This document shows, one piece after another, positions 16,005 through 34,759 of a DNA stretch of 34,781 nucleotides. Position numbers and translations under genes: made by a program. Source of the stretch: Clostridia bacterium (GTDB lineage Bacteria > Bacillota > Clostridia > Christensenellales > Borkfalkiaceae); NCBI GenBank assembly GCA_017415505.1, contig JAFQGG010000023.1:1-34781 (forward strand), in the 5' to 3' direction. The notes beneath the pieces are model-generated. The model was not told the origin of the DNA and searched no databases. It was given only the letters and a program-made list of their open reading frames with translations. The first letter of the stretch is position 1, and each line of letters starts with the position of its first letter.

Positions 16005-17489
16005 ATGCGATACGTAAAACCCCCCGATTTCAAAAGCGTGAAAGAGCTGGAACGGCATTTCAAGGACGCAGAAGCAAAAATCGCGACACTTTTGACGGAC
16101 GGGAGCGCACGCTCGGCAAACGAGCTGAACGCTCGCTTGCAAAGCACGCTTTCCACCGCCGTTTCCTTTCTCTTGGAACAAGCCAAGGCGTTCTCCGTAA
16201 AAGAGCTTTTGGTGGCGTTCGAAGAGGGCAAAAATCGCGCGCCTGCACCTCGAAAGGGCACGGCGCGCATGGCAAAAGAGGTTTTGGCGGCGCAAGGCTT
16301 TAAGTATGCGAAAAACGCCTTTTCCCGTGATACCTATATCGAAATCCGACAGGCGACGGTGAGCGCAGGCAAGGGGCTTGCAAAACGCGTGAACGCTACG
16401 ATCGCGAAGCTGAAAAAGAAGGGCGAGGATACCGTTTATAACGTACAACGGGCAATCCTCGAAGATATGAACGAGCACGGCGTTCTTTTAGTGCGCTACG
16501 CAAACGGTGCAAAACAACCGCTCTCCTCGTATGCCGCCATGGCTGCGCGTAGCGCAAGAATAGAAAGCTCGAATATCGCCGAGATCGGCGGCGCGTTGCT
16601 AGCAGGTAGCGATCTCGTGGAAATGACGACCATGCCCGGCTGTTGCAGACTTTGCGGTGCGTATCAAGGTAAGGTGTATTCCATAAGCGGGAAGGACAAG
16701 CGTTTCCCCGCCCTGTTCAAAACGGTACTTAAAAACGGCTACGCACTTCCCCACCCGAATTGCCGTCACGAGTTTGTCGCCTATTTCGAGGAAATGGAAG
16801 ACCCCGAGGACGTAAAACGAAAAATCCAAAAAAGCAAAATCGAGTACGACGGCAAGGGCAATTTGCGCGACGTGCGAGAGCAAAAGGATATCGAAGCGTA
16901 TCAAGCGTGGCAGGCAGGGAATCGCCAGCTCCGTCGCGAAGAGCTCGAATACGAGGAAATGCGGGCGTATTACGAGGAACGGAATGAAAAACCTCCATAT
17001 GCGACTTTGGCTGGCTTTCGACGGACAAAACGCAAAGAGGCTAAGCTTTACAAAAATAAAAGAAAAGCATGGAAAAAACAAGTAGAACAAAACCAAAAAA
17101 CAAATAATTTGTTGACAGGGGCAGAAAAAAATAGTATAATTATAGAAACTCCTCAACCAAGAATCATAGAAACGGTAAAAGAACTCCCTAAGACACTTAT
17201 CATTGACGACAATCAAATTGGAAAAAAAATAGGGAAACATGCCAAAGATTTCGGGTTAAATCCGAGTCTTGCCAAAGATAGAAAAAAATTTCAAGATATA
17301 ATATATAAAATTTTTAACTTTTATGACGAAATACGCGTTGGGGGGTGGCGCGGTCAAAAGGACGACGTTTTGTTTTATATTAAAGAGAATGATGTTGTTA
17401 TAACAAAACTTGACGGGACGTATATAACGACATTAAAGGACGGTGTAAGTAATGAGAGGGTTAAAAACGCAAGAAAGCGAAAAATTTAA
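16005..17489 (+). CDS. MuF-type minor capsid protein with C-terminal colicin-D-like toxin
   Basis: Residues 1-270 are a minor head protein: helical N-terminus, then PGCCRLCGAYQGKVYSI (about 211-227) and ALPHPNCRHEF (247-257), the Cys/His pattern of MuF/minor capsid 2. A basic linker with KPPYATLAGFRR (329-340) follows. The last ~110 residues resemble the colicin D tRNase domain: KHAKDFGLN (411-419), FQDII, then KENDVVITKLDGTYIT (460-475), against colicin D KHAGDFGI...NVVIIKSNGEFLS. His412 matches the catalytic His; the colicin Ser and Trp positions read Thr and Leu. The tip is AT-richer than the body, a sign of module exchange. Residues 320-494 contain no methionine. Phage MuF polymorphic toxins are a described class. 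Confidence 0.85.
   Translation: MRYVKPPDFKSVKELERHFKDAEAKIATLLTDGSARSANELNARLQSTLSTAVSFLLEQAKAFSVKELLVAFEEGKNRAPAPRKGTARMAKEVLAAQGFKYAKNAFSRDTYIEIRQATVSAGKGLAKRVNATIAKLKKKGEDTVYNVQRAILEDMNEHGVLLVRYANGAKQPLSSYAAMAARSARIESSNIAEIGGALLAGSDLVEMTTMPGCCRLCGAYQGKVYSISGKDKRFPALFKTVLKNGYALPHPNCRHEFVAYFEEMEDPEDVKRKIQKSKIEYDGKGNLRDVREQKDIEAYQAWQAGNRQLRREELEYEEMRAYYEERNEKPPYATLAGFRRTKRKEAKLYKNKRKAWKKQVEQNQKTNNLLTGAEKNSIIIETPQPRIIETVKELPKTLIIDDNQIGKKIGKHAKDFGLNPSLAKDRKKFQDIIYKIFNFYDEIRVGGWRGQKDDVLFYIKENDVVITKLDGTYITTLKDGVSNERVKNARKRKI
17112..17140 (+). promoter_or_regulatory. Consensus promoter inside the toxin reading frame
   Basis: TTGACA (17112-17117), 17 bases, TATAAT (17135-17140), all consensus. It lies at the linker/toxin junction of the MuF gene, about 310 bases upstream of the immunity gene start. 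It encodes NLLTGAEKNSII in the toxin frame. It would let a lysogen transcribe immunity while the late promoter is silent. Confidence 0.75.
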
Positions 17490-17745
17490 TAAGTTTTTTG
17501 TTATGGTTCAAAAGGCGGCTCAAAACAAAAATGCCGTATTTTTTCTCGAAGCTGGGGACGGGAGAGATTTTGAAACGTCGAAAATGGAGGGTGAGGATTT
17601 ACAGGGGTGGTTGATACCAAATAATCAAGCCGACGAATTTGAGTCAATTTGGAGAAAGAATGAGGTGAGCGAGAAATGGGAGGATTTTTTTTGTTTTGCC
17701 GTTTGGCGTAAACGAGGAGAGAGGTTTGAGATTTCGTTTGAATAA
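17452..17745 (+). CDS. Putative immunity protein of the colicin-D-like toxin (97 aa)
   Basis: A small acidic protein encoded directly after, and overlapping by 38 bases, the toxin end of the MuF gene, the standard toxin-immunity layout. It is rich in Phe, Trp and acidic residues (AVFFLEAGDGRDFE, WIL-type GWLIPNNQADEF, WEDFFCFAVWRKRGERF). It reads as a compact alpha/beta protein without secretion or membrane signals, so it would act in the cytoplasm by binding the toxin. A weak AAGGAC/GGTG precedes the ATG. An internal promoter in the toxin supplies transcription. The family was not identified. Confidence 0.7.
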   Translation: MRGLKTQESEKFNKFFVMVQKAAQNKNAVFFLEAGDGRDFETSKMEGEDLQGWLIPNNQADEFESIWRKNEVSEKWEDFFCFAVWRKRGERFEISFE

Positions 17746-17750
17746 AATAG

Positions 17751-18395
17751 GGTAACCCCTACTCCTTTATTCTTGCCGTTCAATCAAAAACGGGCAAAGA
17801 ACCGCCGTATAAAACGCTTGGCGCGTTTCGAAGAGAGTCGAGGAAAGCCAAAGAAGCGCAGTCCGTAGAAATGCGGAAATGGAAGCGTAGAAAATCCGAT
17901 TGGAAAGAATACGAGGATTGGAAACAAAAAATCGGTGCGGAAAATATGCCCGATACGTTTGACAAATTTCAAGAAATCAAGTATAATAGAAGAAATCAAG
18001 CGGAGTTTGAACTTTTACGACATTATCAATATGCTCGTGGAGCAGGAGACATTTCTGCGTTGGTTGGTTTTAAGCTTTATAAGCAAGGTAAACAACGTTT
18101 AGAAAGTCGATTTATAGGGCAAACAACCGTCAGTGGAACGGAAGTAAAATCGGTTTCCAATCACTTTTTGGATAGGTATTTTGGTACGATTTATCGAAAA
18201 AGTTCAAGGGATCCAAAACACGAAGGTGTATCAATAGAAGAACTTGAAGAAGTTTTCTACAAAGGACAATCTTGTGGAATAAAAATTGATAAAAAAGGGA
18301 GAAAAAGTCAAAAGATATTCCTTAAAGGAGTATGTGATGTGACGATTAATCCAGAAACAGGAGAACTTATTCAATGCAACAAAACATCAGAATAA
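17751..18395 (+). pseudogene. Orphan MuF toxin tip (second toxin cassette)
   Basis: An open frame of 214 residues without a start or binding site. It opens with TGKEPPYKTLGAFRRESRKAK, matching the MuF linker NEKPPYATLAGFRRTKRKEAK, so it is a displaced alternative C-terminus. The toxin part begins at DTFDKFQEIKYN and includes SVSNHFLDRYFG, GVSIEELEEVF and CDVTINPETGELIQCN. The His, Arg and beta-strand pattern suggests a BECR-fold RNase like those of other phage head toxins. An internal ATG at 17871 lacks a binding site. It could become active by recombination into the MuF gene. Residues after the embedded promoter lack methionine. Confidence 0.75.
17959..17987 (+). promoter_or_regulatory. Consensus promoter inside the orphan toxin frame
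   Basis: TTGACA (17959-17964), 17 bases, TATAAT (17982-17987). It is encoded within FDKFQEIKYN of the toxin. It lies about 390 bases before the second immunity gene, mirroring the arrangement in the MuF gene. Confidence 0.72.
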
Positions 18396-18586
18396 CGAAA
18401 GAACAAATTGAAACATTGCGTCCGTTTATACCAAAAATAGACGAGTATTTAAAGTCTATGGATATAGATGCTTTTTTACGGGAAATAGACGATGCTGAAA
18501 TTGGTGAGTTGGATGACAACTACAATGAAACGCCTACAAGTAGAACAATTAGAAAATTATATATAGAAATATCTGAACAAAATTAA
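18374..18586 (+). CDS. Putative immunity protein of the orphan toxin (70 aa)
   Basis: A small, acidic helical protein that overlaps the end of the orphan toxin frame by 22 bases, with CAGGAG upstream. Sequence features are a helix with LRPFIPKIDEYLKSMDIDAF and an acidic run EIDDAEIGELDD, suited to masking a basic RNase active site. No family was recognised. Retaining immunity next to a silent toxin fits protection from sibling phages or lysogens that carry the same tip. Confidence 0.65.
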   Translation: MQQNIRITKEQIETLRPFIPKIDEYLKSMDIDAFLREIDDAEIGELDDNYNETPTSRTIRKLYIEISEQN

Positions 18587-18633
18587 AAGCATTTTGCAAT
18601 TGACGGCAAAGTGTTTGTTATACAAGAAAAGTA

Positions 18634-18662
18634 TTGACAAGGAAAAAAAAGAATAGTATACA
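18634..18662 (+). promoter_or_regulatory. Promoter of the Lsm-like gene
   Basis: TTGACA (18634-18639), 17 bases, TATACA (18657-18662). The transcript would start near 18669 and includes a GGTAC/GTACC hairpin before the AGAGGTG binding site. Confidence 0.75.
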
Positions 18663-18712: not shown

Positions 18713-18922
18713 ATGACCGAACAAGAGCTTGAACGATACTTATACAAACATGTAAGAATAATTTGTACTGACGGTGATGTGTTAGAAGGATATGTGTTCT
18801 ATTTCGCTGATGCGGAAGATAATGAACCCGAGGAAGCAGGTATTATTATCCAAAATGAAAAGAACTTAAAGAGAGATGTTTCTGTTTCATTAAGCGAAAT
18901 AAAATCTATCGAAATTATCTAA
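18713..18922 (+). CDS. Lsm/SH3-like small protein, putative third immunity protein (69 aa)
   Basis: The fold reads as an Lsm-like barrel: a helix (TEQELERYLYK) then HVRIICTDGDVLEGYVFYFA, a DNEPEEAGIIIQ strand and the closing SLSEIKSIEII. Such stand-alone proteins recur in polymorphic-toxin loci as immunity proteins; that link is from general knowledge. The start at 18713 with AGAGGTG is chosen because an upstream ATG (18665) falls at the transcription start. It has its own promoter and terminator and no associated toxin, so it may protect against a tip lost from this phage. Confidence 0.65.
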   Translation: MTEQELERYLYKHVRIICTDGDVLEGYVFYFADAEDNEPEEAGIIIQNEKNLKRDVSVSLSEIKSIEII

Positions 18923-18940
18923 AAAGTATTTTGTAGCGAT

Positions 18941-18967
18941 AAAAGCGAGGGGTGAGCTCTCGCTTTT
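18941..18967 (+). terminator. Terminator of the immunity cluster
   Basis: AAAAGCGAG (18941-18949) pairs with CTCGCTTTT (18959-18967), ending in T4. Confidence 0.8.
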
Positions 18968-19222
18968 AGTTTGTCTTTTGTGGAAATACGGTTGCTTTCA
19001 TTCTTGGCGCGCAAAACGTGCTCTAAAACGAACGAGGGGGATTTTCTCGATTAAATACCCGTCACCACGGGAAACGGGCTGAAAAATCAATAATTTAGGA
19101 CAACGCAGAGCTTTTGCGTTGTTCTTTTTTATACGACGGCGGGCGAAGAGCCGTAAAACACAGCAAACATAAAAAATCACGGCGTAGGACGCTGGCTACG
19201 TAAAAAGGCGAAAGGAGATATT
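18968..19222 (+). other. Non-coding structured leader before the scaffold gene
   Basis: No gene is seen. CCCGT/ACGGG makes a small hairpin near 19060-19073. A terminator-like hairpin GGACAACGCA (19098-19107)/TGCGTTGTTC (19115-19124) with T6 follows at 19125-19130. Late transcripts from the terminase promoter would have to read through this. It may separate immunity from capsid expression or be a read-through-controlled leader. Confidence 0.45.
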
Positions 19223-32130: not shown

Positions 32131-33032
32131 GCGTATCGCACGTAACGCAACCGGGCTCTGCGTCGAACGTAACCGTGATTCATAAGACGGTTGAACCGAA
32201 AAAAATCACGAAAGAATCGCTCGTGAACGGCGTGATCGTCGCGATTGTCGTCCTTTTGCTTGCAGGAATTCTCGCTTCTTATTTCGTGAAAAACTTGCCC
32301 GACGTCTTCGTGGATATTGCCGATATATCCAAGCAGGCGTTGTGGGTGTTCGTCGGTGGCTGCGCCATAGGCGAGCTACTCAGAATCGTCTTTATCAATA
32401 AGGCGCACGTTTCCGAGGAATATGTGACCGCGAAAGCGGAAGCGGAGAGTGCACTAAAAAAAATCGTGGACGAGGGCAAGGCGGATAAAATCGAAGCGTA
32501 TTGCGCGGAATACGCGCAATGCTTGTACGAGGAGAATCAAAGACTTGCGTTAGCAGGAAGTAACGTTTCATACGAAACGTTCAAGAGTAAATACGTTGCT
32601 TTGAACAAAAGGGAGCTCGTCGCGAAATATCCGGACGAGAATCTTTCCAAATCGCAGTTGAAGGCGATCGGACGCGCGAACGCAGTGAAAAAGGAACGCT
32701 ACGATCCTGAGTTTTTGATGGTGACGGGCGACGGCGCGTATCAAAACGTACCGTCGAAACGGTATAATGCGCGGGCAAGAAAGACGACGAATACAATCGT
32801 TTCCGCCGCGCTTGGTGCGGTAGGCTCCTTTTTCGGTATCTCCTTTGCCTACGAATTGGTATTCGAGTTTTCGCGGGAGATACTTGTCGCTGCGTTGATA
32901 AAGATCGTATTGCTCGCGTTGACGGTAACGTTAAAGCTTATTTTTGCAAATTCGTTGGTGTTTGATACGGAAATTGGACGTTTCGAATTGCAAAAGGCGG
33001 AAGCAAATGCGTATTTACGGTGGTATAAATAA
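32127..33032 (+). CDS. Membrane protein of the late module (301 aa)
   Basis: TM segments lie at about 32-54 and 68-88, then a helical cytoplasmic domain (AESALKKIVDEGKADKIEAY... RELVAKYPDENLSKSQLKAI) and two or three TM segments (about 222-280). No enzymatic motif is visible. It closes the late operon before a terminator. With the two preceding genes it may form an alternative lysis or membrane complex, since no endolysin is seen. Confidence 0.55.
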   Translation: MSVSHVTQPGSASNVTVIHKTVEPKKITKESLVNGVIVAIVVLLLAGILASYFVKNLPDVFVDIADISKQALWVFVGGCAIGELLRIVFINKAHVSEEYVTAKAEAESALKKIVDEGKADKIEAYCAEYAQCLYEENQRLALAGSNVSYETFKSKYVALNKRELVAKYPDENLSKSQLKAIGRANAVKKERYDPEFLMVTGDGAYQNVPSKRYNARARKTTNTIVSAALGAVGSFFGISFAYELVFEFSREILVAALIKIVLLALTVTLKLIFANSLVFDTEIGRFELQKAEANAYLRWYK

Positions 33033-33050
33033 AAGCTTGATAACGAATAA

Positions 33051-33080
33051 AAAGCCGCGCGTTTTGCGTGGCTTTTTTTT
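33051..33080 (+). terminator. Terminator ending the late operon
   Basis: AAAGCC-G-CGC (33051-33060) pairs with GCG-T-GGCTTT (33066-33075), followed by T5 more. Confidence 0.88.
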
Positions 33081-33129
33081 GTGCGATAACGGCAAATTGG
33101 TTTTTTTTGAAAAATGTTCTAATAATTCC

Positions 33130-33159
33130 TTGACAAAAGCCCGTTTTACTTGTTATACT
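33130..33159 (+). promoter_or_regulatory. Promoter of the toxSAS-Panacea operon
   Basis: TTGACA (33130-33135), 18 bases, TATACT (33154-33159). Confidence 0.82.
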
Positions 33160-33189
33160 AAAAATAAAGAGTGGAGAAAAAACAACGCT

Positions 33190-33798
33190 ATGCAAAAGTT
33201 TTTTGGGCTGGACAGGTTAATAGGAACGTTGGAGGAAAATCATCGTTTTATTAGTGATTGTTGGGCGAAATATAGTGGCGCGCCGAAAATTAATTTGGCG
33301 AAAAAATTGGTAATAGACGTCGTGGATTTGAAACGAAACCCTGAATTAATGACAACGATACTGCAATATCGAGCGTATTTATTTGAAATTGTTACGGAGT
33401 TGAGTTTGCATTTGGCGGAAAGGGGCTTTGATTCGAGGATTAAGAATCAAAACTCTATTGAAAACAAATTGCAAACTTATACCAAAAAGAAAGAAAAAGG
33501 AAAAATTCCCTTGTATAAGTGTTTGAACGATTTGTACGGCGCACGTTTTTTGGCAAGCGGGTTTACGATAGACGAAGTTTATCGTCACGTAAAAGAGTCG
33601 TATCCGCATTTGAGAGTAATGGATGCAACGAAGGATGAGTATAAAGCCGTTCACGTGTATTTTCAGGGTGGGAACTATAACTTTCCTTGGGAACTACAAG
33701 TTTGGCGAGCCGAAGATGAACAGGCAAACAAGGAGTCGCATAGGAAGTATAAGCAAGAATATACTAAATGGGAAAAAGAAACAACGGAGGAGGTTTGA
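33190..33798 (+). CDS. toxSAS-type RelA/SpoT-like synthetase toxin (202 aa)
   Basis: A small RelA/SpoT nucleotidyltransferase domain fills residues 75-185. The substrate loop R83-IK-NQNSIENK93, LNDLYGAR119, DEYKAVH155 with FQGGNYNFPWELQ170, and HRKYK (184-188) match the RSH synthetase motifs RxKxxxSxxxK, D..G.R, YR..H and E.Q. Toxic small alarmone synthetases either pyrophosphorylate tRNA CCA ends or make (pp)pApp, stopping growth. There is no hydrolase or regulatory domain. It is encoded first in an operon with a Panacea antitoxin and is likely an abortive-infection system of the prophage. Which toxic reaction it performs cannot be read from sequence. Confidence 0.82.
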   Translation: MQKFFGLDRLIGTLEENHRFISDCWAKYSGAPKINLAKKLVIDVVDLKRNPELMTTILQYRAYLFEIVTELSLHLAERGFDSRIKNQNSIENKLQTYTKKKEKGKIPLYKCLNDLYGARFLASGFTIDEVYRHVKESYPHLRVMDATKDEYKAVHVYFQGGNYNFPWELQVWRAEDEQANKESHRKYKQEYTKWEKETTEEV

Positions 33799-33800
33799 TT

Positions 33801-34559
33801 GTGATCACGCATTATATTATTTTGAGTAGCGCGTATTCGCAGGGAGAACGGATTGCGCTTGATTTTCCCGATATAATCACTTCGAGAGCACAAGAAATTA
33901 TTGAGGTTTTGAAGCAAATCAAAAACGAATGTGGCAATGACGTTCCTCTATCTACGCATTGTATCGAAACGGACGGGATTGAATGGGAAAGTGTAGAAAG
34001 AGAAGACGCGTTTTTTAGGGGGGTTCTTTTGATAGAATCCGTTTCCGAGTTTATTCGTTTGATAAAAAGAGATCGTGTATTGACGGGCTTGGACGTAGCA
34101 AAATATATTTTGACCGTACAGCCTTGTACCCATTTGAAGTTGGAAAAGCTGGTGTATTTGTGTTATGCGGAATACCTTTGCGCAACTGGCGGTAAGGGGC
34201 GTTTGTTTGAAGATGAGATTTATGCGTATCGATACGGACCTGTGACAAAAACCGTTTATGTAGCATTCAAGGGGTATGGATATGATGTGATAACGCCACA
34301 GGAAGCGGTGGGAGACAATAAAACGTTTACCCGTAAAAACGAGTCTTCCGCAAAAAGTCGCATTATGTTTTCGGATAACGGTTTGAAAAAGTTGGAAACC
34401 ATCGCCGCGACGTTGTTGCGGTACGGAAAACGTTCCGCTGGCGAGTTGATTGACGTCACCCATAGGGAAGGCTCGCCTTGGAGTCGCTATGACAGTAATA
34501 AGGCAGACGAAATAATAAAAGACGAGGATATTCTCGCTTTTCACTGCAACGAAAAATAA
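33801..34559 (+). CDS. Panacea-domain (DUF4065) antitoxin (252 aa)
   Basis: Residues 95-235 are a Panacea domain: TGLDVAKYILTVQPCTHLKL EKLVYLCYAEYL, then EDEIYAYRYGPVTKTVYVAF and a helical end with the WSRYDSNKADEIIKDEDI run. This matches the DUF4065/SocA group whose members neutralise many toxins, including toxSAS. The first ~90 residues are a distinct domain that may set partner specificity. The start is a GTG with GGAGGAGG seven bases upstream, two bases after the toxin stop. Neutralisation by direct binding is inferred from the family. Confidence 0.85.
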   Translation: MITHYIILSSAYSQGERIALDFPDIITSRAQEIIEVLKQIKNECGNDVPLSTHCIETDGIEWESVEREDAFFRGVLLIESVSEFIRLIKRDRVLTGLDVAKYILTVQPCTHLKLEKLVYLCYAEYLCATGGKGRLFEDEIYAYRYGPVTKTVYVAFKGYGYDVITPQEAVGDNKTFTRKNESSAKSRIMFSDNGLKKLETIAATLLRYGKRSAGELIDVTHREGSPWSRYDSNKADEIIKDEDILAFHCNEK

Positions 34560-34601: not shown

Positions 34602-34656
34602 ACGTAATTCCGTTTTTCGGAATTACGTAAGAAAACCACGCGATAGTCGCGTGGTT
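34602..34656. repeat. Two adjacent perfect hairpins
   Basis: ACGTAATTCCG/CGGAATTACGT with a T5 loop (34602-34628), then AACCACGCGA/TCGCGTGGTT with loop TAG (34634-34656). Neither has a following T run, so they are not simple terminators. Confidence 0.7.
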
Positions 34657-34677
34657 CGGTGTAGGTTTACCGATGAG

Positions 34678-34706
34678 TTGAAATAAAAGCTCCGATTTAG
34701 TATAAT
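34678..34706 (+). promoter_or_regulatory. Promoter of the truncated last gene
   Basis: TTGAAA (34678-34683), 17 bases, TATAAT (34701-34706). Confidence 0.8.
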
Positions 34707-34759
34707 GTAATTGCGACCTGCCAGTTGCAAAAACAAAATAAAAAATCGGAGGATAAAAA

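What the first reader, a model, noticed from the sequence alone, without database searches (positions are those of the whole stretch)
17112..18662. Perfect sigma-A promoters embedded inside both toxin frames, upstream of methionine-free toxin sequence
TTGACA-17-TATAAT occurs at 17112-17140 and again at 17959-17987, each at the linker/toxin junction of a toxin frame and 300-400 bases before its immunity gene. A third promoter (TATACA -10) serves the Lsm-like gene. After each embedded promoter the toxin frame has no methionine (about 114 and 133 codons). Transcripts from them would thus translate immunity but not a toxin fragment. This would solve how a lysogen with silent late genes keeps making immunity. 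I know of no description of this design.
Basis: partly seen in the sequence, partly recalled or inferred. Interest (0 to 1): 0.9.

Follow-up and report, generated by a model that had tools for sequence, protein, structure and literature searches.

The report
Immunity promoters hidden in phage toxins
Many Firmicutes viruses that carry a bacterial toxin on a capsid protein also write a bacterial promoter into the toxin's own coding sequence, apparently so that infected cells can make the protective immunity protein while the toxin gene stays silent.

Summary
In detail: TTGACA-N17-TATAAT lies at 17112-17140 and 17959-17987, inside a MuF-toxin frame and an orphan toxin frame. The host genome has 81 such sites and no reversed-control site.

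The junction promoter is a conserved feature of many MuF toxins. The linker peptide [FL]DxFQxxKYN encodes it: found by codon-blind search, its last two codons read TATAAT in 84 of 87 non-redundant linkers (45.8 expected, P about 1e-21), after AAG in 82 (34.7 expected). With Thr for Asn the codon is ACT in 22 of 24 (6.4 expected). A second, unrelated junction peptide, [GD]I[IM], encodes TATAAT in another reading frame: ATA 18 of 18 (7.8 expected), against 22 of 77 elsewhere. Toxin-less MuF genes have no site of 11 or more matches: 0 of 72. Terminators often follow the immunity gene.

Best reading: promoter, immunity gene and terminator form a unit that gives lysogens immunity while late genes are silent. 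Not supported: methionine depletion as part of the design. The principle is known from colicins and type VI effectors. No transcript was measured.

The parts
16005..17489 (+). MuF minor capsid protein with C-terminal toxin 1 (colicin-D-like)
   Evidence: PF06152 E 4e-16; Colicin_D PF11429 E 0.0068, below its cut-off; phmmer to colicin D chains 1tfo/1v74/1tfk E 0.0012-0.0018
17112..17140 (+). Embedded promoter P1, TTGACA-N17-TATAAT; TATAAT in codon frame 2 (peptide LTGAEKNSII)
   Evidence: same kind in L002, L319, L326, L328
17452..17745 (+). Putative immunity gene 1 (97 aa), overlaps the end of toxin 1
   Evidence: position and overlap only; no family match
17751..18395 (+). Orphan toxin cassette 2 (linker plus toxin; stop codon in front, first ATG 17871)
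   Evidence: homologues fused to MuF linkers in many loci, L004 61% identical
17959..17987 (+). Embedded promoter P2, TTGACA-N17-TATAAT; TATAAT in codon frame 0 (peptide FDKFQEIKYN)
   Evidence: class 1 survey
18374..18586 (+). Putative immunity gene 2 (70 aa), overlaps the end of toxin 2
   Evidence: 70% identical homologue behind the same toxin in L004, 33% in L040/L194; AGGAG upstream
18634..18662 (+). Promoter P3, TTGACA-N17-TATACA, upstream of the Lsm-like gene
18713..18922 (+). Lsm/Gemin6-like gene: probable orphan immunity gene of an Ntox50-type toxin
   Evidence: phrog_1865 E 2e-17; 26 of 28 homologues in fetched loci (some near-duplicates) lie directly behind a frame ending in an H-x-VP motif of the IHYSKxGxHIVP kind; two such toxins tested, L128 and L559, are Ntox50 PF15542
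18940..18968 (+). Strong intrinsic terminator after the last immunity gene
   Evidence: found again by another finder
19097..19125 (+). Second strong intrinsic terminator before the next late gene (19223)
   Evidence: found again by another finder

Best explanation
At the linker/toxin junction of toxin-bearing MuF minor capsid genes, the coding sequence also spells a host sigma-A promoter. In a lysogen the late operon is silent, but this promoter transcribes the 3' part of the toxin gene, as an untranslated leader, plus the immunity gene, and stops at a terminator behind it. The prophage host thus keeps immunity without making the capsid-toxin fusion. Because promoter and immunity gene lie within the exchangeable cassette, the unit works wherever the cassette lands. 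In this prophage three such units stand in a row: toxin 1 with immunity 1, orphan toxin 2 with immunity 2, and an orphan Lsm-like immunity gene. Shown by computation: the boxes, their codon-level conservation in two unrelated peptides and two reading frames, their absence from toxin-less MuF genes, and the downstream gene and terminator layout. Inferred: transcription in the lysogen, absence of toxin translation from that transcript, and protection.
For: (1) 81 perfect sites against 0 reversed-control sites in the host genome. (2) Codon-blind survey of [FL]DxFQxxKYN, 87 non-redundant linkers (the window's one among them) from 186 raw in-frame hits: TATAAT 84/87 (45.8 expected, P 1e-21), AAG 82/87, TAT 84/87, AAT 87/87; Tyr and Lys codons on both sides and Asn codons upstream at background. 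Below 45% identity: 47/47 TATAAT while CAA/CAG is 20/27. (3) KYT variants: ACT 22/24, 6.4 expected. (4) Linkers found by an upstream motif only: 31 of 36 have TATAAT (22) or TATACT (9) at the site. (5) Second peptide class: ATA 18/18 against 22/77 for the same tripeptide elsewhere; extended -10 TGnTATAAT in frame 2 in 16/89 toxin-bearing ORFs (null mean 2.7, max 7 in 300 shuffles); 0/72 toxin-less. (6) Of 199 codon positions scanned, the only 10 with |z| of 4 or more lie from -6 to +12 of the motif, including the likely -1 T. (7) 47 of 56 strong promoter-like sites within 3 kb of 87 loci sit exactly at the junction. (8) Terminator within 1 kb of the toxin stop 38/71 against 3/53 in coding control; 23 of the 38 begin within 300 nt. 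(9) The window carries integrase, HTH_3 repressor-like and terminase genes.
Against: No transcription start has been measured. The -35 box is weaker and varied: TTGACA exactly in 11/87, and GAC, needed for TTGACA, is not enriched (16/87, 22.5 expected). In the sample found by the upstream motif, perfect 12-of-12 sites are not in excess (1 of 36, null 0.7) and 5 of 36 lack a good -10. Streptococcus phages SM1 and OlisA2 keep AAGTATAAT but have a poor -35 (9 of 12 matches). Several constrained bases are not explained by a plain sigma-A promoter: TTC at the spacer Phe 63/87, G at -16 and -13, G at about +3; G at -13 is not special to host promoters (10 of 30). In PF06152 MuFs TATAAT in frame 0 is not in excess (16, null 14.3), and 35 of 40 toxin-bearing MuFs with GC of 0.50 or more have no site of 11 or more. 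The class 2 tripeptide was chosen after seeing TATAAT-bearing members of the same sample. Function of the immunity genes is inferred from position.
Confidence: 0.85

Rival explanations
1. The promoter is real, but its transcript also makes a truncated toxin, so the unit is a selfish toxin-antitoxin module rather than immunity only.
For: Salmonella Rhs internal promoters yield a toxic product from a CTG start (PMC7043789). In-frame TTG/GTG and starts preceded by Shine-Dalgarno-like sequence are not depleted in toxin parts. 60 of 77 toxins have at least one Met. In the window, toxin 2 keeps in-frame TTG 18060 (AGGAG about 11 nt in front) and TTG 18168.
Against: In the window there is no in-frame ATG after either promoter; the one non-ATG start with a well-spaced AGGAG, GTG 18339, is 18 codons from the stop. 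17 of 77 toxins are Met-free. Orphan cassettes whose toxin frame is reduced to 23 codons (L146, L249) still keep the box.
Confidence: 0.12
2. The boxes are conserved for another DNA or RNA role: a recombination site for cassette exchange, or an mRNA cleavage site separating toxin and immunity messages.
For: The site sits at the exchange junction. Several orphan frames begin a few codons upstream of it. AAG before the hexamer and TTC in the spacer are not explained by sigma-A alone.
Against: Spacer codons vary freely (CAA 39, CAG 48), unlike a homology block. The same TATAAT appears in two frames and unrelated peptides, often with TTG-containing -35 sequences at 16-17 nt and an extended -10. 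The last T is kept when Asn becomes Thr. A cleavage site would not need a -35 box.
Confidence: 0.06
3. The boxes are accidents of AT-rich codon usage on a conserved peptide.
For: KYN can only be encoded by AAR TAY AAY, and TAT and AAT are the preferred codons in these genes: 45.8 of 87 TATAAT expected.
Against: 84 observed (P 1e-21); AAG runs against the bias (82/87, 34.7 expected); ACT 22/24; ATA 18/18; same residues elsewhere in the genes at or near background.
Confidence: 0.01

Closest known systems
V. cholerae T6SS effector genes vasX, tseL, vgrG-3 with internal promoters for tsiV2, tsiV1, tsiV3 (PMC3857813; passages seen)
   Same: Promoter inside the toxin gene drives the immunity gene when the delivery system is silent.
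   Different: Bacterial T6SS of a Gram-negative; no conserved dual-coding peptide in the passages seen; no phage late operon.
Colicin E2 operon: SOS promoter plus constitutive Pcei, terminator between immunity and lysis genes (PMC4353708, PMC4161892; passages seen)
   Same: Silent toxin operon, constitutive immunity promoter, terminator after immunity. Toxin 1 here is itself colicin-D-like.
   Different: Plasmid bacteriocin of Gram-negatives; one system. That Pcei lies within the colicin gene is recalled, not seen.
Salmonella Rhs main and orphan copies with internal promoter P2 upstream of the toxin junction (PMC7043789; passages seen)
   Same: Promoter in the conserved region before the variable toxin, kept in main and orphan copies, found beside different toxins.
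   Different: There it expresses a toxic product plus immunity; T6SS/Rhs, not a phage capsid protein.
MuF polymorphic toxins of temperate phages (PMC5576092, PMC12226406, PMC11699363; passages seen)
   Same: Same protein family, prophage location, downstream immunity gene.
   Different: The word promoter does not occur in the main text of PMC5576092. In PMC12226406 all 6 places concern expression plasmids; in PMC11699363 two of three occurrences were shown, both expression plasmids.

Membership tests
MuF polymorphic toxin | MuF / Phage_min_cap2 or Phage_Mu_F domain at the N-terminus | tested here: met
   PF06152 E 4e-16 on 16005-17489
MuF polymorphic toxin | C-terminal toxin domain | tested here: inconclusive
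   Toxin 1 matches colicin D chains at E 0.0012-0.0018 but PF11429 only below cut-off; toxin 2 has no Pfam or NCBIfam family but homologues fused to MuF
MuF polymorphic toxin | Cognate immunity gene directly downstream | tested here: inconclusive
   Small overlapping genes present; immunity 2 homologue co-occurs with the toxin 2 homologue in L004 and L040/L194; neutralisation not testable
MuF polymorphic toxin | Temperate phage/prophage context | tested here: met
   Integrase, HTH_3 repressor-like and terminase genes in the window
Sigma-A promoter | TTGACA, 16-18 nt, TATAAT | tested here: met
   selection on the boxes
Sigma-A promoter | Measured transcription start | not testable with these tools
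   No RNA data available
Toxin-embedded immunity promoter (colicin / T6SS / Rhs kind) | Promoter within the toxin coding sequence, same strand, reading into the immunity gene | tested here: met
Toxin-embedded immunity promoter (colicin / T6SS / Rhs kind) | Immunity expressed when the toxin operon is silent | not testable with these tools
   Needs lysogen transcript or reporter data
   1.79% against 1.91% Met, P 0.67; GTG/TTG not depleted

The most novel reading that the evidence does not exclude
Two unrelated 'conserved linker peptides' of toxin-bearing phage capsid proteins are conserved largely because their DNA is a host promoter. Phages have independently written the same promoter into the toxin gene in different reading frames, making the toxin cassette a self-contained exchangeable unit (promoter, toxin tip, immunity, terminator) that lets prophages collect an array of constitutively expressed immunities against rival phages' toxins.
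Probability: 0.6. Interest if true: 0.88.

Novelty: new variant of a known kind. Interest (0 to 1): 0.8.

Why it matters
How a lysogen stays immune to a toxin encoded in its silent late operon is an open question for MuF toxins, whose biological role is described as unknown (PMC11699363, passage). A junction promoter with its own terminator answers it and predicts a mappable transcription start in Firmicutes prophages of this type. It explains part of why the linker peptides are conserved, gives a codon-level signature for finding new toxin-immunity pairs and orphan immunity genes without knowing the toxin, and is a dual-coding case (protein and promoter) with two unrelated peptide solutions.

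Tried and rejected
Methionine/start depletion as part of the design: tested and rejected. Chance: rejected. Peptide conservation alone: rejected by synonymous codons. Host-wide preference for G at -13: not seen, 10 of 30. TATAAT in frame 0 of PF06152 MuFs: no excess. The L005 linker found nothing in the phage collection; the L041 linker found 5 records, all under 60% identity. Rfam: two tRNAs and one STnc490 match, none at the locus. Profile search of toxin 2 against solved structures: no relevant hit. A structure prediction for toxin 2 (window plus 13 relatives) had not finished after ten polls and is not used. Literature: ten searches listed no paper that I recognised as describing promoters inside MuF toxin genes; only open-licence PMC papers are held and no preprints, so this is not proof of absence. 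Passages of PMC4905994 and PMC4364669 held nothing to the point.

Rows dropped: one search dropped 63 of 186 in-frame matches (unrelated short frames, chance proteins, and some true linkers with little upstream sequence), then 36 near-duplicates. One search kept 36 of 57. One search dropped 8 of 35 and 3 near-duplicates; three of the eight (L298, L299, L301) look like true linkers by eye: L298 has TATACT, L299 and L301 do not. One search used 29 of 30 loci, themselves the best of 54 places; at least one of the 29 (L331) is not the MuF frame. One search dropped 26 ORFs running off the contig, 11 without the anchor, 15 near-duplicates, and left one of 162 in neither length class. One search looked only at 22 loci that I chose. 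One search left out 12 of 89 ORFs with a score of 9 from the Met comparison. The class 2 tripeptide was defined after looking, so its P value is not that of a blind test.
Full report
OBSERVATION. In the host assembly, a perfect TTGACA-N17-TATAAT occurs 81 times and its reversed control 0 times, so such a match is very unlikely to be chance. P1 lies in the MuF-toxin gene 16005-17489. P2 lies in a second, orphan frame ending at 18395. P3 (TTGACA-N17-TATACA, 18634-18662) precedes the Lsm-like gene, whose start is probably ATG 18713. Strong terminators follow at 18940-18968 and 19097-19125. Integrase, HTH_3 repressor-like and terminase genes make this a temperate prophage.

WHAT THE GENES ARE. The N-terminal part is Phage_min_cap2 (PF06152). 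Toxin 1 resembles the colicin D tRNase domain: phmmer to 1tfo, 1v74 and 1tfk at E 0.0012-0.0018; the Pfam match is below its cut-off. Toxin 2 has no named family, but homologues are fused to MuF linkers in many loci, and a same-genus genome (L004) has a MuF-fused form 61% identical, with a 70% identical immunity homologue behind it. That locus also has a perfect TTGACA-N17-TATAAT at the junction, with Val (GTT) instead of Phe providing the TT of the -35 box. Of 28 homologues of the Lsm-like protein found in the fetched loci (some near-duplicates), 26 lie directly behind a frame ending in an H-x-VP motif of the IHYSKxGxHIVP kind; the two such toxins tested, L128 and that of Streptococcus phage OlisA2, are Ntox50 (PF15542, E 4e-34 and 3e-17), and in OlisA2 the next gene is annotated gemin6. 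One of the other two, in L118, lies some 240 nt behind a toxin 2 homologue, much as in the window. So the window's Lsm-like gene is probably an orphan immunity gene, and the locus holds three putative immunity genes, each behind its own promoter.

CLASS 1 JUNCTION. P2 is encoded by the peptide FDKFQEIKYN. I searched for this peptide without regard to codons ([FL]DxFQx-hydrophobic-KYN) in viral contigs (83 stretches) and genome contigs (109 stretches). With the loci and the window, 186 in-frame matches were found, 123 linker-like and 87 non-redundant. The Lys codon is AAG in 82 of 87 (34.7 expected from each gene's own usage, P 1e-28), Tyr TAT in 84 (63.8), Asn AAT in 87 (61.7); TATAAT as a whole in 84 (45.8, P 1e-21). 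Tyr and Lys codons in the flanks, and Asn upstream, are at background; Asn downstream is slightly AT-biased (187/231, P 0.0055). Spacer codons vary: CAA 39, CAG 48; GAT 71, GAC 16. Clustering at 45% identity leaves 47 sequences, all 47 with TATAAT. The -35 hexamer is TTGATA in 35, TTGATG in 14, TTGACA in 11, others in 27; the first Phe is TTT in 46 of 51 (37.5 expected, P 0.002). Of 22 records of named organisms printed, 21 have AAGTATAAT; the other (L165) is a frame full of stops. The named phages are weaker: SM1 and OlisA2 keep AAGTATAAT but match the full promoter at only 9 of 12 positions; phiCDKH02 has 10 of 12.

TWO PREDICTIONS TESTED. (a) If the box matters, KYT linkers should use ACT. 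In viral contigs (35 stretches; 24 non-redundant linkers), ACT is used in 22 of 24 (6.4 expected, P 2e-12). Five unrelated sequences with the same pattern (L293, L303, L304, L307, L308) gave no TATACT; two dropped rows that look like true linkers (L299, L301) also lacked it, a third (L298) had it. (b) Linkers found only by an upstream motif (36 non-redundant) should have the box: 22 have TATAAT and 9 TATACT at the site, 5 do not. TATAAT in the region is above 200 synonymous shuffles (24, null mean 15.4, maximum 21). Promoter scores of 10 or more and 11 or more are also above the shuffles (26, null 15.2, maximum 21; 12, null 6.5, maximum 11), but perfect sites are not (1, null 0.7).

CLASS 2 JUNCTION. 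P1 is of another kind: its TATAAT falls in a different codon frame, within LTGAEKNSII. A relative with a different toxin (L002, 65% identical MuF) has the same layout. PF06152 genes from 391 genomes of the class gave 3 perfect promoters in 29 ORFs (null mean 0.05, maximum 1 in 100 shuffles), all in frame 2; at 10 or more matches the excess is not beyond the shuffles (14, null 7.6, maximum 14). Frame-2 TGnTATAAT, an extended -10, occurs in 16 of 89 toxin-bearing ORFs (null mean 2.7, maximum 7) and 0 of 72 short ones; frame-0 TATAAT is not in excess in either (16, null 14.3; 2, null 2.2). The tripeptide [GD]I[IM] at the junction, a motif I defined, uses ATA 18 of 18 times (7.8 expected, P 8e-8), with GGT (10) or GAT (8) before it; elsewhere in these genes it uses ATA 22 of 77 times (31.4 expected). 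The matching -35 codon ends in TT in 13 of 16 aliphatic cases (5.1 expected, P 4e-5). Allowing for base composition, sites scoring 11 or more (12 plus one for TGn) are in 9 of 20, 14 of 29 and 5 of 40 toxin-bearing ORFs at GC below 0.40, 0.40-0.50 and above (nulls 2.1, 1.6, 0.2), and in 0 of 38 and 0 of 34 short ORFs; at 10 or more, in 12, 18 and 8 (nulls 8.0, 5.1, 1.6) and in 0 and 1. Short ORFs have less sequence to search; shuffles of the same ORFs account for this.

LIMITS OF THE SIGNAL. A scan of 199 codon positions around class 1 found |z| of 4 or more at 10 positions, all between codons -6 and +12: upstream positions -6, -3 and -2, the spacer Phe (TTC), the G at -16 and -13, the two TATAAT codons, the likely -1 T (70 of 87, 31.2 expected) and a G at about +3. 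Within 3 kb of the 87 junctions there are 56 promoter-like sites of 11 or 12 matches, 47 of them exactly at the junction. The spacer TTC and the G bases are not explained by a plain sigma-A promoter and may mean regulation by another factor.

TRANSCRIPTION UNIT AND ORPHANS. An intrinsic terminator lies within 1 kb of the toxin stop in 38 of 71 class 1 loci (23 of the 38 begin within 300 nt), against 3 of 53 coding-region controls; in 35 of 69 toxin-bearing and 12 of 59 short PF06152 loci. Among 22 loci I picked for a closer look, 12 frames (the window's included) have a stop fewer than 70 codons upstream of the motif; all 12 keep AAGTATAAT, including two whose toxin frame is reduced to 23 codons (L146, L249). 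Two of the 12 are the same sequence (L174, L208), one is a longer MuF frame with a stop in the linker (L238) and one lies at a contig end (L204). A following ORF with a Shine-Dalgarno-like sequence was found for 7 of the 12.

METHIONINE. Across 77 class 1 toxins, in-frame ATG is rarer after the junction than in the MuF part (1.36% against 2.35%), but GTG and TTG are not, and starts with Shine-Dalgarno-like sequence are not (14 of 360 against 27 of 1001). In the PF06152 sample promoter-bearing and promoter-less toxins do not differ (1.79% against 1.91%, P 0.67). Low Met is thus probably a property of these toxin domains. In the window the absence of Met is within chance (0.23 and 0.18, using 21 ORFs I chose without annotation).

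MECHANISM AND COMPARISON. The simplest account is a dual-coding sigma-A promoter that expresses immunity, not toxin, in the lysogen, closed off by a terminator so that late genes stay silent. The principle is that of the colicin E2 operon (constitutive Pcei, terminator behind the immunity gene; PMC4353708 and PMC4161892), of V. cholerae T6SS effector genes (PMC3857813) and in part of Salmonella Rhs (PMC7043789). What appears new is its presence in MuF capsid toxins, its spread over many Firmicutes records (titles; the assignment of most names to Clostridia or Bacilli is recalled), its codon-level conservation, and two unrelated peptide solutions. Searches of the open-access library listed no description. 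All of this is sequence evidence; no transcript was measured.

Noticed in passing
18713-18922; homologues: Lsm/Gemin6-like genes sit directly behind Ntox50-type MuF toxins (26 of 28 homologues behind H-x-VP-ending frames), suggesting an Sm-fold immunity protein; the Ntox50 row of the table in PMC3482391 lists no immunity protein (passage seen).
   Followed up: partly
32944-34559: Weak RelA_SpoT domain (below cut-off) next to a Panacea (SocA) antitoxin-like gene: possible toxin-antitoxin pair at the prophage end.
   Followed up: no
L002:4444-4518: A tRNA-Thr gene (anticodon TGT) lies in the phage late region just behind the gene after the toxin and a terminator-like hairpin seen by eye.
   Followed up: no
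34634-34752: Rfam STnc490 (an Hfq-binding RNA) just above its cut-off; possibly chance.
   Followed up: no
L023:1501-1529: Another perfect promoter of the host genome lies inside a 638-codon same-strand frame.
   Followed up: no
Class 1 linkers, spacer and -16/-13: TTC at the spacer Phe (63 of 87), G at -16 and -13, and G at about +3 are strongly selected without a known promoter role; they may be a regulator site.
   Followed up: partly
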